DNA of 54,785 nucleotides from a bacterium (GCA_021813505.1 JAKAKI010000073.1:109851-164635); one strand, 5' to 3'. Shown: positions 22,495 through 34,610, counted from the first letter of the stretch. The notes: a model not told the origin generated them from the sequence alone. Numbers and translations are program-made.

Positions 22495-22793
22495 GTCATT
22501 CCCGCGATAGGACGTACTGAAGAATCCGTCTCCAACGTCGCGGCAGTTGCGCAAGGGCGAGATTGCTTCGTCGCTCCCTCCGCCTTCGGCGGAGACGCTC
22601 CTCGCAACGACAACTGTGCCATTGCGGTGCCAACAACCAATGGGATGTCGTTGCGAGGCGCGGTTCTTTGCGCCGAAGCAATCTCGCCCATGCACAACTT
22701 CCGCCGCTCTTCGAAGGACATCTTCAACACGCCCAATTGCGGGAATTCAGTCCCCCGCGCGTCTGAATTTCCGCTTTCGCGGGAATGACGGCG
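22495..22793. repeat. Palindromic mobile-like element (GATTGCTTCGTCGCTCCC family) with flanking TTCCCGC repeats
   Basis: From about 22527 to 22740 the left half (TCTCCAACGTCGCGGCAGTTGC ... CTCGCAACGAC) is matched by its reverse complement on the right (GTCGTTGCGAGGC ... GGACATC), with a 30-nt unpaired centre. Inner palindrome tccgccttcggcgga. The same element forms the middle of 28442-29003, and a shorter relative lies at 26040-26165. 22764-22793 carries ttccgctttcgcgggaatgacg. No gene is supported in 22448-22934. Confidence 0.75.
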
Positions 22794-28441: not shown

Positions 28442-29003
28442 GGGAGCCCGAAAAGCGTGGCCGCGATCTTTGGGGCCTGTTGAAGAACCGGGCAGACAAG
28501 AGTGTCTGCCCCACTCTTGGTCATGGAAGTTCTTCTCTCTCAGTGGCGCGGACACTCTTGTCCGCGCTCTCGTTTCCAAATGCTGGGGTTTTTCAACACG
28601 CCCCTTTGGTGCCTGTTGAAAAACTCGTCCCCAACGTCGCGGTAGTTGCGTCGGGGGGAGGTTGCTTCGTCGCTCCCTCCGCCTTCGGCGGAGACGTTCC
28701 TCGCAAGGACATCCGTGCCTCTGCATTGCCAGTGAACCTTCTGATGTCGTTGCGAGGCGCGGCTCTATGCGCCGAAGCAACCTCCCCCTTGCTCAACTGT
28801 CGGCGCTCCTCGGAGGACTTCTCCAACGTGCGCCCGAGGGGCGTGTTGAAAAACCCGGGCCTCTGGTTGCGAGAGCGCGGACAAGAGTGTCCGCGCCACT
28901 GAGAGACAAGAGCTTCCATGATCCGGAGTGGGGCAGACACTCTTGGCTGCCCGGTTCTTCAACACGCCCCAGAGATCGCGGCCACGCTTGGGTTGCGCTC
29001 CCG
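28442..29003. repeat. Giant (about 560 nt) imperfect palindrome, nested mobile-like repeats
   Basis: Left arm (about 28442-28715) and right arm (about 28740-29003) match in reverse complement along nearly their whole length, e.g. AGCGTGGCCGCGATCT at both outer ends, GTTGAAGAACCGGGCAG, GTGGCGCGGACACTCTTGTC and TTTTTCAACACGCCCC further in. The inner 200 nt are a copy of the element at 22527-22740. Sub-palindromes such as gacaagagtgtc lie within each arm. The unpaired centre is only about 25 nt. No gene is supported in 28403-29017. Confidence 0.85.
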
Positions 29004-29017
29004 CACCCGGCACCTCC

Positions 29018-29683
29018 CTATTTCGTCAGGACAACATGCGTGGCGTTGTCCGTGTGGGCGTGCTCGGTGCATTTGTAGCCGAGGCTCACCGTGTCGATGC
29101 CGGCCAGGAGATGCTCGCCCCGGCCGAGGAGTACTGGGGAAATCACGAGATGGATTTCGTCGATCAGTCCCGCGGTGAGGTACTGGCGAATGGTGGCAGC
29201 TCCGCCGCCGAGCCGGATGTCCTTGCCGCCAGCCGCCTCCTTTGCGCGTTTCAGCGCGGCATGGATGCCATCGGTCACGAAGTGGAACGTCGTTCCGCCC
29301 TCCATCGCGAAGTACGCACGCGCGTGGTGTGTGAGCACGAAAACCGGTACGTGGTTGGGCGGGTTGTTGCCCCACCATCCCTTCCAACTGTCATCGGTCC
29401 AGGGGCCTCGGATCGGCCCGAACATGTTGCGGCCGAGGATCCAGGCGCCGACGTTCGCGAAACCGCGCGCGGCGAAATCGTCGTCGATGCCTCCTTCGGC
29501 ATCCCTGTCGCCGATCAGCGATTCGGCGAAGTCACCGTGCATCTTCTGGAAAGTCTTCGTGCCGAAGACCCACTGGTGCAGTGCCATACCGCCGATTCCC
29601 ATCGGATTTTCCAGATCCTGGCCGGGACCGGCGCCGTATCCATCAATAGAGATTGCGAATGCGTTCACCCGAAGCTTCGACAT
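29018..29683 (-). CDS. Dihydrofolate-reductase-like (RibD C-terminal family) protein
   Basis: 221 residues from ATG 29681-29683, preceded by AAAGGAG. It has the DHFR-like layout of the RibD C-terminal family: first strand LRVNAFAISIDGYGAGPG, WILGRNMFGPIRGPW (about 86-100), VPVFVLTHHAR (about 116-126), DIRLGGGAATIRQYLTAGLI (about 160-179, the NADP-binding G-G-x-x-x-x-x loop) and EIHLVISPVLLGRGEHLLAG. Such proteins are probable NADPH-dependent reductases; the substrate is unknown and it is not the housekeeping folate enzyme. It lies in the island between infC and rpmI, next to the giant palindrome, transcribed toward rpmI. Confidence 0.88.
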   Translation of the reverse strand: MSKLRVNAFAISIDGYGAGPGQDLENPMGIGGMALHQWVFGTKTFQKMHGDFAESLIGDRDAEGGIDDDFAARGFANVGAWILGRNMFGPIRGPWTDDSWKGWWGNNPPNHVPVFVLTHHARAYFAMEGGTTFHFVTDGIHAALKRAKEAAGGKDIRLGGGAATIRQYLTAGLIDEIHLVISPVLLGRGEHLLAGIDTVSLGYKCTEHAHTDNATHVVLTK

Positions 29684-29932
29684 GAGCGTAACTCCTTTCG
29701 GCGCAGGTATCGCCTGCGCCTTAGCTTCGTGAGTGAAACGCTTCCGGGCTTCGGGGGTCAATTACAAAGTTGGGTGAAGTTGGAATGGGCTCGGTGTCTA
29801 TGCCGTGACGAAAGCCGGCTCAAGTCGGGACGGATGTGACTGTCAGCTTTCGGTCGACCGCTATTGGAGATCGTCGACACACCAGCCCAAGGTCAAGGGC
29901 ATCCGCGCCCGGCGAGAAGTGCCCGATTCAGA

Positions 29933-29961
29933 TTGACAACCCCGTCGACTGTGCTTATGAT
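29933..29961 (+). promoter_or_regulatory. Consensus sigma-70 promoter of the island module
   Basis: TTGACA (29933-29938), 17-nt spacer, TATGAT (29956-29961): five of six at -10 and six of six at -35. Transcription would start near 29968 and drive the genes at 30083 and 31051, with a leader of about 110 nt. Confidence 0.8.
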
Positions 29962-30082
29962 TTACCGTTGCTCCCTTCCCCGAGGGGGCGTAGCCAAATA
30001 TAGTATTTGAAGCCATAGACTGGATGGCCGGGTGTACACGATGAGAGAATCCGAAACGGATTCACTTGGCAAGGAGGATTGA

Positions 30083-31054
30083 TTGGACTCAACCCTGCAC
30101 GACACACTGACTGTTCTCTCAGCGTTCAGAGGGCTCGAAGTTGTACTTCGTGTCGCCCCCAAAACCGCAAAGTGGGTGTGGGAGAGGTTCTTGGATCACG
30201 TCGATTTGCCTGGCAAGCGGCGCGAACTCATCGAGGCCTTGTTCGTCGACAAGCGTGACATTCTGTTTCATCCGGGGACAGATTGGCGACCGGCAGAAGG
30301 GCAAACTGCGCCCCCCTATACGGCGCGGGGTTACCCCCACGAAGTGCGTGCCCTAAGGGCCTTTACACCCTTCTTCCCTGAAGAATCCAGGTACCAAGAG
30401 ACGCTGTTTTTTCCATCTTCCCTGGAGGGCTCGAGCAGGTTGATCTGCACTGGCAGTACGAAGACAAATAACATGGTGAGGAAATACTTGCCCTCCCTCG
30501 AGTTTAAGGATGGCAAGGCGCGTCAGCAATATGCGTCTTTCCTTCGAACTGAGGACCTAACGTACTTGTTTGGAGAAGACCTATCAGCTCCCATGGTTGA
30601 AGTTGTTTCGATGATGTCACCCGGTGCAACGAAGCCCAAGACGCGTAAGATGATCTGGAAATGGAGGGCGGCTGGAGATTTGGACACATGGCAACCAAAG
30701 AATTACATGAGCGGGAAAAGTCTCAATAGCGACTTTCTCCTAATCTCGCGACTCCCACGCACATCCGTCGGTGGGGATATTCTGATCTTCGCAGGAGGGC
30801 ACGGCGCAGGGACCGAAGCTGTGACGCTGCTTCTCAATCAGCTTCCCCTGAGTCAGCTTCGTGACTTGGTCGATCAACTGCAGGATAAACCCTATTACCA
30901 GTTCGTGATTGAAGTTACAGAGGTCAGACATGAGGCAACCGGTACTATACCGATCCAGATCAAAATCTCCGATGAAATGCCACCGGTAAAACTGCCGATC
31001 GGCGCCACAAACCTTCGCGATAAGGCCGTGTGCCCAACGAAAGTGTGGTCATGA
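30083..31054 (+). CDS. Unknown protein, first gene of the island module
   Basis: 323 residues from TTG 30083, with AAGGAGG five nt upstream. I do not recognise a named family. Visible: a helical N-terminus (1-60), a central part with SSRLICTGSTKTNNMVRKYL (about 117-136, a strand-loop-helix with G-S-x-x-x-N), then a DFLLISRLPRTSVGGDILIF strand pair followed by AGGHGAGTEAVTLLL (about 234-269). The combination G-S-x-x-x-N / D-x-L-(L)-I-x-R-L-P / G-G-x-G-x-G-T suggests an alpha/beta nucleotide-like binding fold, which is inference only. It overlaps the HAD gene by 4 nt (ATGA), so they are co-translated. Its base composition looks lower in GC than the ribosomal genes around the island. Confidence 0.8.
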   Translation: MDSTLHDTLTVLSAFRGLEVVLRVAPKTAKWVWERFLDHVDLPGKRRELIEALFVDKRDILFHPGTDWRPAEGQTAPPYTARGYPHEVRALRAFTPFFPEESRYQETLFFPSSLEGSSRLICTGSTKTNNMVRKYLPSLEFKDGKARQQYASFLRTEDLTYLFGEDLSAPMVEVVSMMSPGATKPKTRKMIWKWRAAGDLDTWQPKNYMSGKSLNSDFLLISRLPRTSVGGDILIFAGGHGAGTEAVTLLLNQLPLSQLRDLVDQLQDKPYYQFVIEVTEVRHEATGTIPIQIKISDEMPPVKLPIGATNLRDKAVCPTKVWS

Positions 31055-31749
31055 AAGGGATCGGGCTGGCGTTTGACCTCGAGGGAACGTTGGTAGATCT
31101 TGAGAAAGCCCATCATGGAGGGCATCTCGAGACCGCCAGAGAATTAGGTCTGACGCTCTCGTTCGAGGACGCTTTGAAACTAATTCCTTCTTTGGTGGGA
31201 GGGCCGGATTTTGCCGTGGCCGCAGAAATCAAGAAAGCTGCCGACGCACAAGATTCTGTTGAGGAGATAGTTTCCCGGACGCGTCGACACTACAGACGAT
31301 TGCGGGCTGCCATGGACATTTGTCCGCGACGCGGAGTAGCCGCATTCTTACTCTCGGCACGGCAAATGAACATTCCGTTGGCGATTGGATCGGTAACAAG
31401 TCGAGAGGACGGCAACGCGATTCTTTCAGCCGCGGGCTTACTGAGCTTTTTCCCCCAACACGCACAGGTTTTCATTGAGGACGTTGTACAACCGAAGCCG
31501 GCTCCGGATGTGTATGTCGAGACAGCAAATCGGATGGGCGTTGCTGTCTCGCATCAACTAGTCTTTGAAGACTCACCTGTCGGTGTAAGAGCGGCGATTG
31601 CGGCGAATTCACGAGTAATCGCGATTCCCGCTGTAACGGACTTCAACATTCTGGATCACTTCAGGAGATGTGGTGCTCTTGCGGTCTTCAGTGATTGGAC
31701 GGACTTTTCGATTGAAAGCATTATTAAGCTGTGGAACCCAATGGTGTAG
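31051..31749 (+). CDS. HAD-superfamily hydrolase (beta-phosphoglucomutase-like)
   Basis: 232 residues from ATG 31051, which overlaps the previous stop. HAD motifs: I AFDLEGTLVDLE (about 7-18), II GSVTSRED (about 110-117), III QPKPAPDVYVE (about 148-158, catalytic Lys), IV LVFEDSPVGVRAAIAA (about 170-185, acidic pair ED). A helical cap follows motif I. Motif I reads D-x-E-G-T rather than D-x-D-G-T: the nucleophile Asp is kept but the acid/base Asp is Glu, which could alter or weaken phosphatase activity. The likely role is a phosphatase or phosphomutase on a small molecule or nucleotide; within this module it could act with the unknown protein. Start 31030 (GTG) is an alternative. Confidence 0.88.
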   Translation: MKGIGLAFDLEGTLVDLEKAHHGGHLETARELGLTLSFEDALKLIPSLVGGPDFAVAAEIKKAADAQDSVEEIVSRTRRHYRRLRAAMDICPRRGVAAFLLSARQMNIPLAIGSVTSREDGNAILSAAGLLSFFPQHAQVFIEDVVQPKPAPDVYVETANRMGVAVSHQLVFEDSPVGVRAAIAANSRVIAIPAVTDFNILDHFRRCGALAVFSDWTDFSIESIIKLWNPMV

Positions 31750-31966
31750 TGACCTGCGACTCATCAGCGGCCTCAACCTGATTCTTGGCAACGCGAAAGG
31801 CCCAGGGGCTCGCCTCCTCCATTGTTTATAGCGGGGCCATCTTCTCGCCAACTCGACAACACTGCAGCGGGAATTTCCCCGCGCCTCCGTTTTCAAGATT
31901 CTCTTCGCCTCACGAGATATGTTTGAGGTCTGTTGACGAAGTTCACGGAAGAAAAGGAACGCAATC

Positions 31967-33763
31967 ATGGTACATGGCAACCCACTACCCAGTAATGATC
32001 TGGTCCTCCTAAACGCCTTGCTGGAACAGACGTTGCCTCAATTTCCAGGAGATCTCGATGAGGCTGAGCGGTTCGAATACTTTGTCTTCGAGCAGATCCT
32101 AAAGCCATATGACCTATCCGAAAGCGAGATTCGATATGGTCAAATGTCTGGAGGCGACGACGGAGGAATAGACGGTCTATACACTTTGGTGGACAGCGTT
32201 CTGATCCGGGAGGATACCGACCTTTCTGCTTTCAGGGCAGCTGGAACTGTCGATCTATACGTAATTCAGGCGAAGCGGGAGGGTTCTTTCAAAGAGGAGC
32301 CCATTGACAAAGTGCAAAAGACGGTAAGAGATCTCTTTGCGCTGGCTGGTCCGGAAGACTCACAGAAGATTCGGTACAACAGTGACTTGCTCACCGCGGC
32401 AGGGATCTTCAGGGACTGCTGCAAGAAGCTCGCGGCTGACTTCCCAAACATTCGGCTGACAGTCGTCTATGCCACCAAAGGTGAGACCAATGAGGCTCAT
32501 CCAAAGGTCATGGCGGCGGCGGTCGCCCTGAGAACCCAGATGGGAACGATGTACACTGATGCTGAAGTCGAGGTACGACTGCTTGGTGCACGTGAGCTCT
32601 ATGAGGAAGCGAAGAAGAAGAGAAGATCCAGACTGCGCTTGGTCTTTCAGAAGCTCTTTACCAAGGGTGAAGATGGATACGTCGCGCTTAGCACGATTAA
32701 TGACTTCCATGCGTTCATCACTGACGATCGCGGGAGCATGAGAAAGGATGTCTTCGATTCGAACGTACGTGATTTTCAGGGTAATGTTGAGGTCAACAAG
32801 GACATTTCCGGAACGCTGGCTGCCCGCGACGACGTCGATTTTTGGTGGCTGAATAATGGCATCACCATTGTGTGCACGCGCGCGCGTCTACAAGGGGACA
32901 TAATTCTCATGGAGGATGCGCAGATTGTCAACGGATTGCAGACCACGGTCAGCATACACCGCTATATGAAGCGAGAGAAACCACAGAATGACAAGCGGAG
33001 CATACTGATCAAGATCCTTCAGACACGAGAGAGCCGCACACGGGACAGAGTAATAAAGGCGACCAACTTCCAAACAGCAGTTACGGCCGGCTCGCTAAGG
33101 GCAACTGACCCATTCCAAGCAAAGCTTGAGGATTTCTTCGTATCGCACGGCATGTACTATGACAGAAGGAAGAACTACCACAAAAACCTCGGACGGGCAG
33201 CCTCACAGATAATATCAATCGAGTACTTGGGACAAGCGCTGATGGCGATAGCATTGAGGCAGCCAGATCAAGCGCGCGCGCGACCGACCACATTGATCAA
33301 GGACGACAATGGATATCGGAAGGTTTTCGACCCGAACCGAAGACTTGAGGTGTATTTGTTCTGCGCTAAAACGATGCGAGCCGTCGAGGAACTCGGTAGA
33401 GAGAAAATTGACGGCATGCAAATTGAGCTTAAGGATGAAACAAGATTCAAAGTTAGAAATTACCGCTTTCACCTTGGTCTGTTCTGCACTGCGGGATTTG
33501 TCGGTAGGCTCGATTTCACAGAATCAGCCCTTGACTCCGTCGCTGATAAGGAAGTGGATGCAGGCGTTTTCGGGAGAGCCTTCGACTATCTCGACTTCCT
33601 CCGTAGTAGACACGCTGATTCCTATGATTTCGACTGGGACGAAGATCGCATGGCAAAATCGAATCTCTTTGTCCAATACGCGCTCGACCCTCAAGCTGAT
33701 GAGGATTCAAGCGAGCCAGTTGACCACGTGTTTGCCCGCGTCTTTGGGCTCGATTCGCCTTAG
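31967..33763 (+). CDS. AIPR-family protein (abortive phage infection type) with nuclease-like N-terminus
   Basis: 598 residues. The AIPR core is unmistakable: NVRDFQGNVEVNKDISGTL (about 265-283), FWWLNNGITIVC (about 292-303) and AQIVNGLQTTVSIHRYM (about 318-334). The N-terminal 200 residues carry GGDDGGIDGLY (about 62-72) and LYVIQAKRE (about 97-105), the D...(Q)xK pattern of a PD-(D/E)xK nuclease. The family was named after a lactococcal abortive-infection protein and is often found next to defence systems. The likely role is phage-triggered nucleic-acid cleavage, inferred. ATG 31967 has AAAAGGAA upstream. 217 nt separate it from the HAD gene, and I see no clear promoter or terminator there, so it may be in the same operon. 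Confidence 0.9.
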   Translation: MVHGNPLPSNDLVLLNALLEQTLPQFPGDLDEAERFEYFVFEQILKPYDLSESEIRYGQMSGGDDGGIDGLYTLVDSVLIREDTDLSAFRAAGTVDLYVIQAKREGSFKEEPIDKVQKTVRDLFALAGPEDSQKIRYNSDLLTAAGIFRDCCKKLAADFPNIRLTVVYATKGETNEAHPKVMAAAVALRTQMGTMYTDAEVEVRLLGARELYEEAKKKRRSRLRLVFQKLFTKGEDGYVALSTINDFHAFITDDRGSMRKDVFDSNVRDFQGNVEVNKDISGTLAARDDVDFWWLNNGITIVCTRARLQGDIILMEDAQIVNGLQTTVSIHRYMKREKPQNDKRSILIKILQTRESRTRDRVIKATNFQTAVTAGSLRATDPFQAKLEDFFVSHGMYYDRRKNYHKNLGRAASQIISIEYLGQALMAIALRQPDQARARPTTLIKDDNGYRKVFDPNRRLEVYLFCAKTMRAVEELGREKIDGMQIELKDETRFKVRNYRFHLGLFCTAGFVGRLDFTESALDSVADKEVDAGVFGRAFDYLDFLRSRHADSYDFDWDEDRMAKSNLFVQYALDPQADEDSSEPVDHVFARVFGLDSP

Positions 33764-33893
33764 TCGTGTGGCGGTGTTGGAAGTGCCAAAGTGCCCGGCT
33801 GCCTGCGGTGGGTTGCTTCGCTTCACTGGCGCTAACCTACGCGCTCGGGACAGCCACGATCCCACGGCAACCCGTGGGGCACCCAATACAACG

Positions 33894-33953: not shown

Positions 33954-34610
33954 CTACGCCGACATCCCCTCTGACGCCACCGTGGTGGCTGGCGCTGCCG
34001 GTGGGATTACATCGGATGGAGCGGGGATCGTGCCTTCGGGTTTCTTGGCTTCGGCGTGGTGGTGCTCCTCATCCTTTGTTTTAACTGGGCCGCGCTTCGG
34101 GTTGATAATCAACGACATATGGCGGCCTTCCATGCGCACCGATGGTTCGGGGAGGCCGACGTCGGCGAGGCTTTCTTTGACGCGTTCTAAGATTCGGTAG
34201 CCGAATTCTGTATGGGTCATTTCCCGGCCGCGGAACTCGACGAAGGCACGGACCTTGTGGCCGTCCTGCAGGAACTCGCGCAGGCGGTTGGTCTTGAAGT
34301 TGATATCGTGCTCGTCGATTTTGGGACGGAAACGCATCTCTTTCAATTGGGTGGCGTGCTGCTTTTTCTTGGCACGCTTCGCGTTCTTCGCTTCCTCGTA
34401 CTGGAACTTGCCGAAGTCGAGAATGCGGCACACCGGGGGACGGGCGTTGGGGGATATCTCGACTAAATCCAGCCCCTGGTCCTGTGCCTGTTTGAGGGCG
34501 TCCTTGGTGGCCATGATCCCAAGCTGGGTGCCGTCGGGACCGATGACGCGTACTTGCGGGAATCGAATGCGGTTGTTGATTCGTGTGGAAGGCTGGCGCG
34601 AAACAGCGAT
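33954..34610 (-). CDS. infC: Translation initiation factor IF-3 (non-canonical AUC start)
   Basis: 218 residues if started at ATC 34608-34610. The N-domain is then complete: RINNRIRFPQVRVIGPDG and QLGIMATKDALKQAQDQGLD, followed by ISPNARPPVCRILDFGKFQY, the linker (AKRAKKKQHATQLKEMRFRP) and the C-domain (HKVRAFVEFRGREMTHTEFG, EGRHMSLIINPKRG), with an extra Ala/Pro/His-rich tail. Starting at the only in-frame ATG (34514) would delete the conserved first strand. GGAGG (34620-34624) lies 9 nt before ATC. IF-3 itself discriminates against such starts, the known basis of infC self-control in E. coli (AUU start). A CCCCGC/GCGGGG hairpin (34625-34641) abuts the ribosome site. Confidence 0.9.
   Translation of the reverse strand: MAVSRQPSTRINNRIRFPQVRVIGPDGTQLGIMATKDALKQAQDQGLDLVEISPNARPPVCRILDFGKFQYEEAKNAKRAKKKQHATQLKEMRFRPKIDEHDINFKTNRLREFLQDGHKVRAFVEFRGREMTHTEFGYRILERVKESLADVGLPEPSVRMEGRHMSLIINPKRGPVKTKDEEHHHAEAKKPEGTIPAPSDVIPPAAPATTVASEGMSA

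What the first reader, a model, noticed from the sequence alone, without database searches (positions are those of the whole stretch)
29933..33763. Candidate new defence module: unknown protein + HAD hydrolase + AIPR protein
A consensus promoter drives an uncharacterised protein (G-S-x-x-x-N and GGHGAGT motifs) whose stop overlaps a HAD phosphatase-like gene, followed by an AIPR protein with a nuclease-like N-terminus. AIPR alone is linked to abortive infection. A nucleotide-binding-type partner plus a phosphohydrolase could form a signal-sensor-effector set.
Basis: inference. Interest (0 to 1): 0.7.

Follow-up and report, generated by a model that had tools for sequence, protein, structure and literature searches.

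The report
Sensor–phosphatase gene pair beside AbiU
Two of the three genes look like a small co-translated module, an unnamed receptor-like protein plus a phosphatase, of a type that recurs in distant bacteria, while the third gene is an unrelated, already known anti-phage gene (AbiU) that happens to sit next to it.

Summary
The three genes are real and lie as described, in a 4-kb low-GC insert between infC and a RibD_C-type gene; a same-genus genome carries other genes at that site. The trio is not one system. The AIPR protein is a full-length AbiU homologue. In 105 AbiU loci (1.34 Mb) none carries the unknown protein's domain, and the only two HAD genes found lie over 3 kb away. The unknown 323-aa protein has no Pfam, NCBIfam, PADLOC or PDB match. 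Its two motifs (GSxxxN, AGxHxxGT) mark an unnamed domain found elsewhere fused to caspase, TIR-like, DUF4062 and probable cyclase domains, to HTH domains, or behind a membrane anchor. In HTH- or membrane-anchored forms the next gene is a PP2C-family phosphatase, often with overlapping start and stop: 6/6 in Chloroflexota, 5/6 in Actinomycetota, 4/5 plasmids examined. The window pair has the same build (4-nt overlap) with a HAD phosphatase in PP2C's place. I read P0001+HAD as a variant of a conserved, mobile receptor–phosphatase module, probably of biological-conflict type. Ligand, substrate and anti-phage activity are untested.

The parts
29778..33800 (.). inserted segment relative to the same-genus genome G130, which has a different 1.7-kb segment at the same place
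   Evidence: blastn: window 33801 and 29777 align to L127 4316 and 6040, nothing between; GC 52.5% against 58.5% for the window, GC3 0.53-0.60 against 0.67-0.80 for neighbouring genes
29933..29961 (+). possible sigma-70-type promoter TTGACA-17-TATGAT
   Evidence: 11/12 consensus match; number of such sites in the region not above shuffles
30083..31054 (+). P0001: 323-aa protein; helical N-terminus without TM or recognised HTH, then the unnamed receptor-like domain (about residues 115-295) with GSxxxN and AGxHxxGT motifs
   Evidence: domain homology by two independent profiles, E 5.5e-8 and 3.6e-7, best of 5000 shuffles 0.12 and 0.25; no TM segment
31051..31749 (+). HAD-superfamily phosphohydrolase (beta-phosphoglucomutase/CbbY-like, class IA), overlapping P0001 by 4 nt
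   Evidence: PF00702, PF13419, TIGR01509 above cut-off; PDB relatives 6w04, CbbY, beta-PGM; catalytic residues in place
31967..33763 (+). AbiU-type AIPR protein (neighbour, judged not part of the module)
   Evidence: PADLOC AbiU 556.6 bits over residues 10-572; PF10592; over 400 relatives
29018..29686 (-). RibD_C/dihydrofolate-reductase-like gene, conserved flank of the variable site
   Evidence: PF01872 E 1.1e-17; 90.5% identical copy in G130
33954..34514 (-). infC, other conserved flank

Best explanation
The finding covers two independent cargo items in one variable island of a Zixibacteria-type genome. (A) P0001+HAD is a co-translated receptor-phosphatase pair. P0001's C-terminal Rossmann-like domain is proposed to bind a small molecule through its GSxxxN and AGxHxxGT loops; in relatives the same domain is the variable-output receptor of caspase, TIR-like, DUF4062, probable cyclase and HTH proteins. 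Its state controls, or is controlled by, the phosphohydrolase made from the overlapping reading frame. In most relatives that enzyme is a PP2C-type phosphatase; here a HAD sugar-phosphatase-like enzyme takes its place. Most likely the phosphatase resets or triggers the switch by removing a phosphate from the ligand or from a partner protein, during invasion by phage or mobile DNA. (B) The AIPR gene is a solo AbiU-type abortive-infection protein with a predicted PD-(D/E)xK-like nuclease N-terminus. Shown: gene layout, the domain homology, its fusions, the conserved phosphatase partner, the variable site, and AbiU's solo distribution. Inferred: fold, ligand binding, direction of the switch, substrate, and the anti-invader role.
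For: Domain homology: a profile of acidobacterial proteins finds P0001 at E 5.5e-8; a separate profile of Chloroflexota and Actinomycetota members only finds it at 3.6e-7. Fusions: caspase C14 (L223), TIR/NDT-like effector next to TIR-STAND and TIR-TIR genes (L194/L207), DUF4062 (L195, weaker, E 0.0097), HTH. Phosphatase partner: 6/6 Chloroflexota and 5/6 assessable Actinomycetota genes and 4/5 plasmids examined have one homologous PP2C family immediately downstream, with overlaps of 4, 7 or 31 nt or gaps of up to 48 nt where measured; leave-one-out E below 1e-27; PF13672 above cut-off in two. The window pair overlaps by 4 nt with an intact HAD active site. Conflict or mobile context: TIR-NACHT-HEAT (L218), HmaA helicase and Ymh gene (L220), FtsK/DUF2637 element (L236), plasmids, and here AbiU at a variable site.
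Against: The HAD partner was seen only once; no second P0001+HAD pair was found. P0001 itself has no close relative in 131 other genomes of its phylum, plasmids, phages, viral contigs or GTDB contigs, so the pair cannot be followed by descent. Many acidobacterial members are probable chromosomal regulators without a phosphatase, and L234 and L222 sit among nucleotide-sugar genes, so the domain is not defence-specific. The single-sequence structure prediction failed (pLDDT 33), so the fold is inferred from motif order only.
Confidence: 0.6

Rival explanations
1. All three genes form one defence module: P0001 senses, HAD processes a signal, AIPR kills.
For: Same strand, same island, similar low GC, 217-nt gap, no clear terminator between HAD and AIPR.
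Against: 105 AbiU loci hold no P0001-domain gene and no PP2C; the only two HAD hits are over 3 kb away. 50 AbiU-bearing genomes have the domain only in 3 acidobacterial ones, as long regulator-type proteins. AbiU relatives stand alone or beside R-M and TA genes on plasmids.
Confidence: 0.08
2. The phosphatase is the effector: once P0001 is triggered, HAD (or PP2C) strips phosphate from an essential metabolite or protein and stalls the cell or the phage.
For: HAD class IA proteins act on small phosphorylated metabolites (established knowledge; relatives); other defence systems deplete nucleotides (general knowledge; PMC12265719 abstract).
Against: The domain when fused carries its own effector (caspase, TIR-like) with no phosphatase needed; PP2C enzymes normally act in regulation.
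Confidence: 0.17
3. The pair is a regulatory or metabolic module without an anti-invader role, for example sensing a sugar phosphate or controlling an element's own genes.
For: Actinomycetota members are HTH proteins carried by plasmids and integrative elements; L222 and L234 lie in sugar-nucleotide operons; HAD resembles sugar phosphatases.
Against: Fusions to caspase and TIR-like domains and neighbours such as TIR-NACHT, HmaA, Ymh and AbiU point to conflict.
Confidence: 0.3
4. P0001 and HAD are chance neighbours with a fortuitous 4-nt overlap.
For: Only one P0001+HAD case seen; HAD genes are abundant; 4-nt overlaps are common in bacteria (general knowledge).
Against: 15 of 17 assessed relatives without an effector fusion have a phosphatase in exactly this position, and apart from AbiU this island contains no other gene.
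Confidence: 0.15

Closest known systems
AbiU / AIPR (PADLOC PDLC02357, PF10592), abortive infection gene first described in Lactococcus
   Same: gene 3 matches the AbiU model over residues 10-572 at 556 bits; same motif set and solo layout
   Different: no experimental test; an N-terminal HEPN toxin domain stated for AIPR in PMC3506569 is not what the motifs here suggest (DGGID...QAK, PD-(D/E)xK-like)
'sigma factor-like HTH protein' + 'protein phosphatase 2C domain-containing protein' gene pairs of actinobacterial plasmids (e.g. WP_330441374/WP_330441372, WP_012476905/WP_012476904)
   Same: same unnamed C-terminal domain and same receptor-then-phosphatase gene order
   Different: N-terminus is HTH there, a helical region here; partner is PP2C there, HAD here; I found no paper describing the pair
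Conflict systems with effector-associated domains (PMC7159879, PMC8195603)
   Same: shares fusion partners (caspase, TIR-like, probable cyclase) and STAND/SLATT neighbours
   Different: no vWA/MoxR, EAD, Death-like or STAND component in the window; the domain is not named in Pfam and I saw no description of it in those papers (text searched by terms only)
Kinase-kinase-phosphatase module KKP (PMC11341870, abstract only)
   Same: a phosphatase inside a mobile anti-phage module
   Different: KKP has two Ser/Thr kinases; no kinase here

Membership tests
AbiU/AIPR | full-length match to curated AbiU profile | tested here: met
   556.6 bits, profile 1-530 of 537
AbiU/AIPR | AIPR domain above Pfam cut-off | tested here: met
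   124 bits against cut-off 25
AbiU/AIPR | nuclease fold at N-terminus | tested here: inconclusive
   D65, D69, Q101 invariant and K103 nearly so; whole-chain model has no PDB match
AbiU/AIPR | abortive infection phenotype | not testable with these tools
   needs phage assay
receptor-domain + phosphatase pair | the unnamed C-terminal domain with GSxxxN and AGxHxxGT motifs | tested here: met
   two independent profiles, E 5.5e-8 and 3.6e-7
receptor-domain + phosphatase pair | phosphatase gene immediately downstream on the same strand | tested here: met
   HAD with intact motifs, 4-nt overlap
receptor-domain + phosphatase pair | partner belongs to the PP2C family of the other members | tested here: not met
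   partner is HAD; the PP2C profile finds nothing in the window; hence 'variant', not 'member'
receptor-domain + phosphatase pair | HTH or TM anchor N-terminal to the domain | tested here: not met
   no Pfam HTH, no TM; N-terminus helical only
EAD/STAND conflict systems | EAD, STAND NTPase or MoxR-vWA core in the locus | tested here: not met
   Pfam scan of the three genes
HAD superfamily class IA | four catalytic motifs | tested here: met
   D9/E11, S114, K149, E173/D174; the DxE first motif is a variant of the usual DxD

The most novel reading that the evidence does not exclude
The unnamed domain is a widespread bacterial receptor for one phosphorylated signal molecule, read out by caspase, TIR-like, DUF4062, cyclase or HTH outputs and switched by a co-translated phosphatase (PP2C, or HAD as here): a previously undescribed phospho-signal immune circuit.
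Probability: 0.2. Interest if true: 0.85.

Novelty: new variant of a known kind. Interest (0 to 1): 0.5.

Why it matters
The domain links caspase-, TIR-like- and HTH-type proteins of several phyla and has no name in Pfam, NCBIfam or PADLOC. Its tight coupling to phosphatase genes gives a concrete, testable handle (substrate of the HAD, ligand of P0001) on how such conflict proteins may be switched. It also shows that screens listing only AbiU at this locus miss the adjacent pair.

Tried and rejected
Single-sequence searches with P0001 failed everywhere (Pfam, NCBIfam, PADLOC, PDB, plasmids, phages, viral and GTDB contigs, own phylum). Other weak hits (L158-L160, L162) were inspected and rejected as chance; only L149 was real. 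Viral-contig searches with A4 and L210 gave nothing. Cyanobacteriota gave no domain hit in 386 genomes, which the tool warns proves little. AbiU model against PDB: no match with E below 0.001. Considered and dropped: P0001 as SLOG/LOG nucleotide-binding protein (no profile support); CapK/CapS-like switch (PMC13373217 shows STAS/GHKL domains, not this one).

Full report
What is there. The window holds thrS-infC-[insert]-RibD_C gene-rpmI-rplT-pheS-pheT. The three genes reported are all real ORFs on the + strand: P0001 30083-31054, HAD 31051-31749 (ATGA overlap), AIPR 31967-33763. Their GC is 51-53% and GC3 0.53-0.60 against GC3 0.67-0.80 in neighbours. In the same-genus genome G130, infC, the RibD_C gene, rpmI and rplT are 90-99% identical, but the interval corresponding to 29778-33800 is replaced by an unrelated 1.7-kb segment with two unknown ORFs. 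In other relatives of the family and order, infC and rpmI are adjacent. So the trio lies in a variable site. A contig shared between G068 and a named record (L004/L025, contig length 11141 in both) indicates the phylum is Candidatus Zixibacteria; this is an inference from matching contig lengths.

The AIPR gene. It matches the PADLOC AbiU model over nearly its full length. Over 400 relatives were found in GTDB contigs and 17 in viral contigs, and 122 plasmid records match. On annotated plasmids it stands alone, among integrases, TA genes, DNA methylases and transposases. In 105 AbiU loci covering 1.34 Mb, profiles of the P0001 domain and of the PP2C partner find nothing, and the window HAD finds only two genes, each over 3 kb from AbiU. 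AbiU is therefore a solo gene. In 27 homologues D65, G66, I68, D69 and Q101 are invariant and K103 and E110 nearly so, as in PD-(D/E)xK-type nucleases (from established knowledge). The model (mean pLDDT 84) has no PDB relative, so the nuclease fold stays a motif-level prediction.

The unknown protein. P0001 has no database match and no detectable relative by single-sequence search in any collection. A weak hit in an AbiU-bearing acidobacterial genome (L149) proved real. Its C-terminal part belongs to a family of acidobacterial proteins with a TM segment and, by inspection, a wHTH-like N-terminus. A profile of that family finds P0001 at E 5.5e-8 where the best of 5000 shuffles reaches 0.12. A second profile built only from Chloroflexota and Actinomycetota members finds it at 3.6e-7, best shuffle 0.25.

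Where the domain occurs. In the window's own phylum: fused behind a TIR/NDT-like domain in a cluster with a TIR-STAND ATPase, a tandem-TIR protein and a SLOG/DUF4231 membrane protein (L194/L207; domain E 7.3e-7), and behind DUF4062 (L195/L208; weaker, E 0.0097). In Chloroflexota (8 of 380 genomes): fused to a caspase (L223, PF00656 E 5.9e-12), to a probable nucleotide cyclase (L221; by inspection, no Pfam match) and as short membrane-anchored proteins. In Actinomycetota (6 of 396 genomes): mostly HTH + domain proteins; 24 plasmids carry homologues, several annotated as sigma-factor-like HTH proteins.

The phosphatase partner. Members without an effector fusion are followed by a gene of one PP2C-like family: all six in Chloroflexota (7-nt overlap ATGGTAG where measured in L217, L218, L220; a 48-nt gap in L222; L219 and L224 by profile only), five of six assessable in Actinomycetota (overlaps 4, 4, 4 and 31 nt, or a 10-nt gap), and four of five plasmids examined. 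The PP2C proteins recognise each other in leave-one-out tests at E below 1e-27; two exceed the Pfam PP2C_2 cut-off; NCBI names two of them protein phosphatase 2C and two 'integrase'. The searches that found the domain genes did not use the phosphatase, so the association is not built in. Exceptions: L234 (nucleotide-sugar operon) and L241; L238 ends at the contig edge. The window pair shows the same order and coupling, with an intact HAD hydrolase instead of PP2C. This is a single case, so 'HAD replaces PP2C' is an inference.

Mechanism. Shown: domain identity, fusions, gene coupling, mobile or variable context. Inferred: the domain binds a ligand and its state is linked to a phosphatase that either resets the signal or acts on a partner. 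The recurring outputs (caspase, TIR-like) and neighbours (TIR-NACHT L218, HmaA and Ymh L220, AbiU here) favour a role against invaders. The HTH versions on plasmids and integrative elements leave a regulatory role for the element open.

Literature. AIPR/AbiU is a known abortive-infection family often tied to R-M (PMC3506569). PMC7159879 and PMC8195603 describe conflict systems sharing the fusion partners; term searches there found PP2C only with a kinase. I found no description of this domain or pair in the open library, which lacks most subscription papers.

Verdict. A two-gene receptor-phosphatase variant beside a solo AbiU gene is the best-supported reading.

Noticed in passing
L127 4395-5072 and 5156-5746 (G130, same genus): Two ORFs without meaningful Pfam match occupy the same infC/RibD_C site in place of the window's island; the site looks like a cargo hotspot.
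   Followed up: partly
G000:C83 996-1712 (L002): The window's own genome carries a second, shortened AIPR gene near a contig end (PF10592 E 7e-32), followed by an unknown 224-aa ORF.
   Followed up: partly
22518-22728 and 28617-28827; arms 28453-28630 / 28812-28989: Dispersed 211-nt repeat (82% identical) and a 178-nt inverted repeat in intergenic DNA, a REP/MITE-like element; a copy also lies elsewhere in G130.
   Followed up: no
L207 691-8800 (G063, same phylum): Dense cluster of TIR-STAND, tandem TIR, TIR/NDT-like + domain, SLOG/DUF4231 and a further TIR-like gene.
   Followed up: partly
L220 (Chloroflexota): Receptor-PP2C pair sits between an HmaA-type helicase with NOV_C and a Ymh-domain gene.
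   Followed up: partly
L242 3869-4705 and L243 3913-4725: PP2C-like partners are annotated 'integrase' in RefSeq; the PP2C profile matches them at E 5e-70 and 1e-71, so the name looks wrong.
   Followed up: yes
31051-31090: HAD motif I reads D-L-E-G-T, with Glu where most HADs have Asp, as in enolase-phosphatase E1 (from general knowledge).
   Followed up: no
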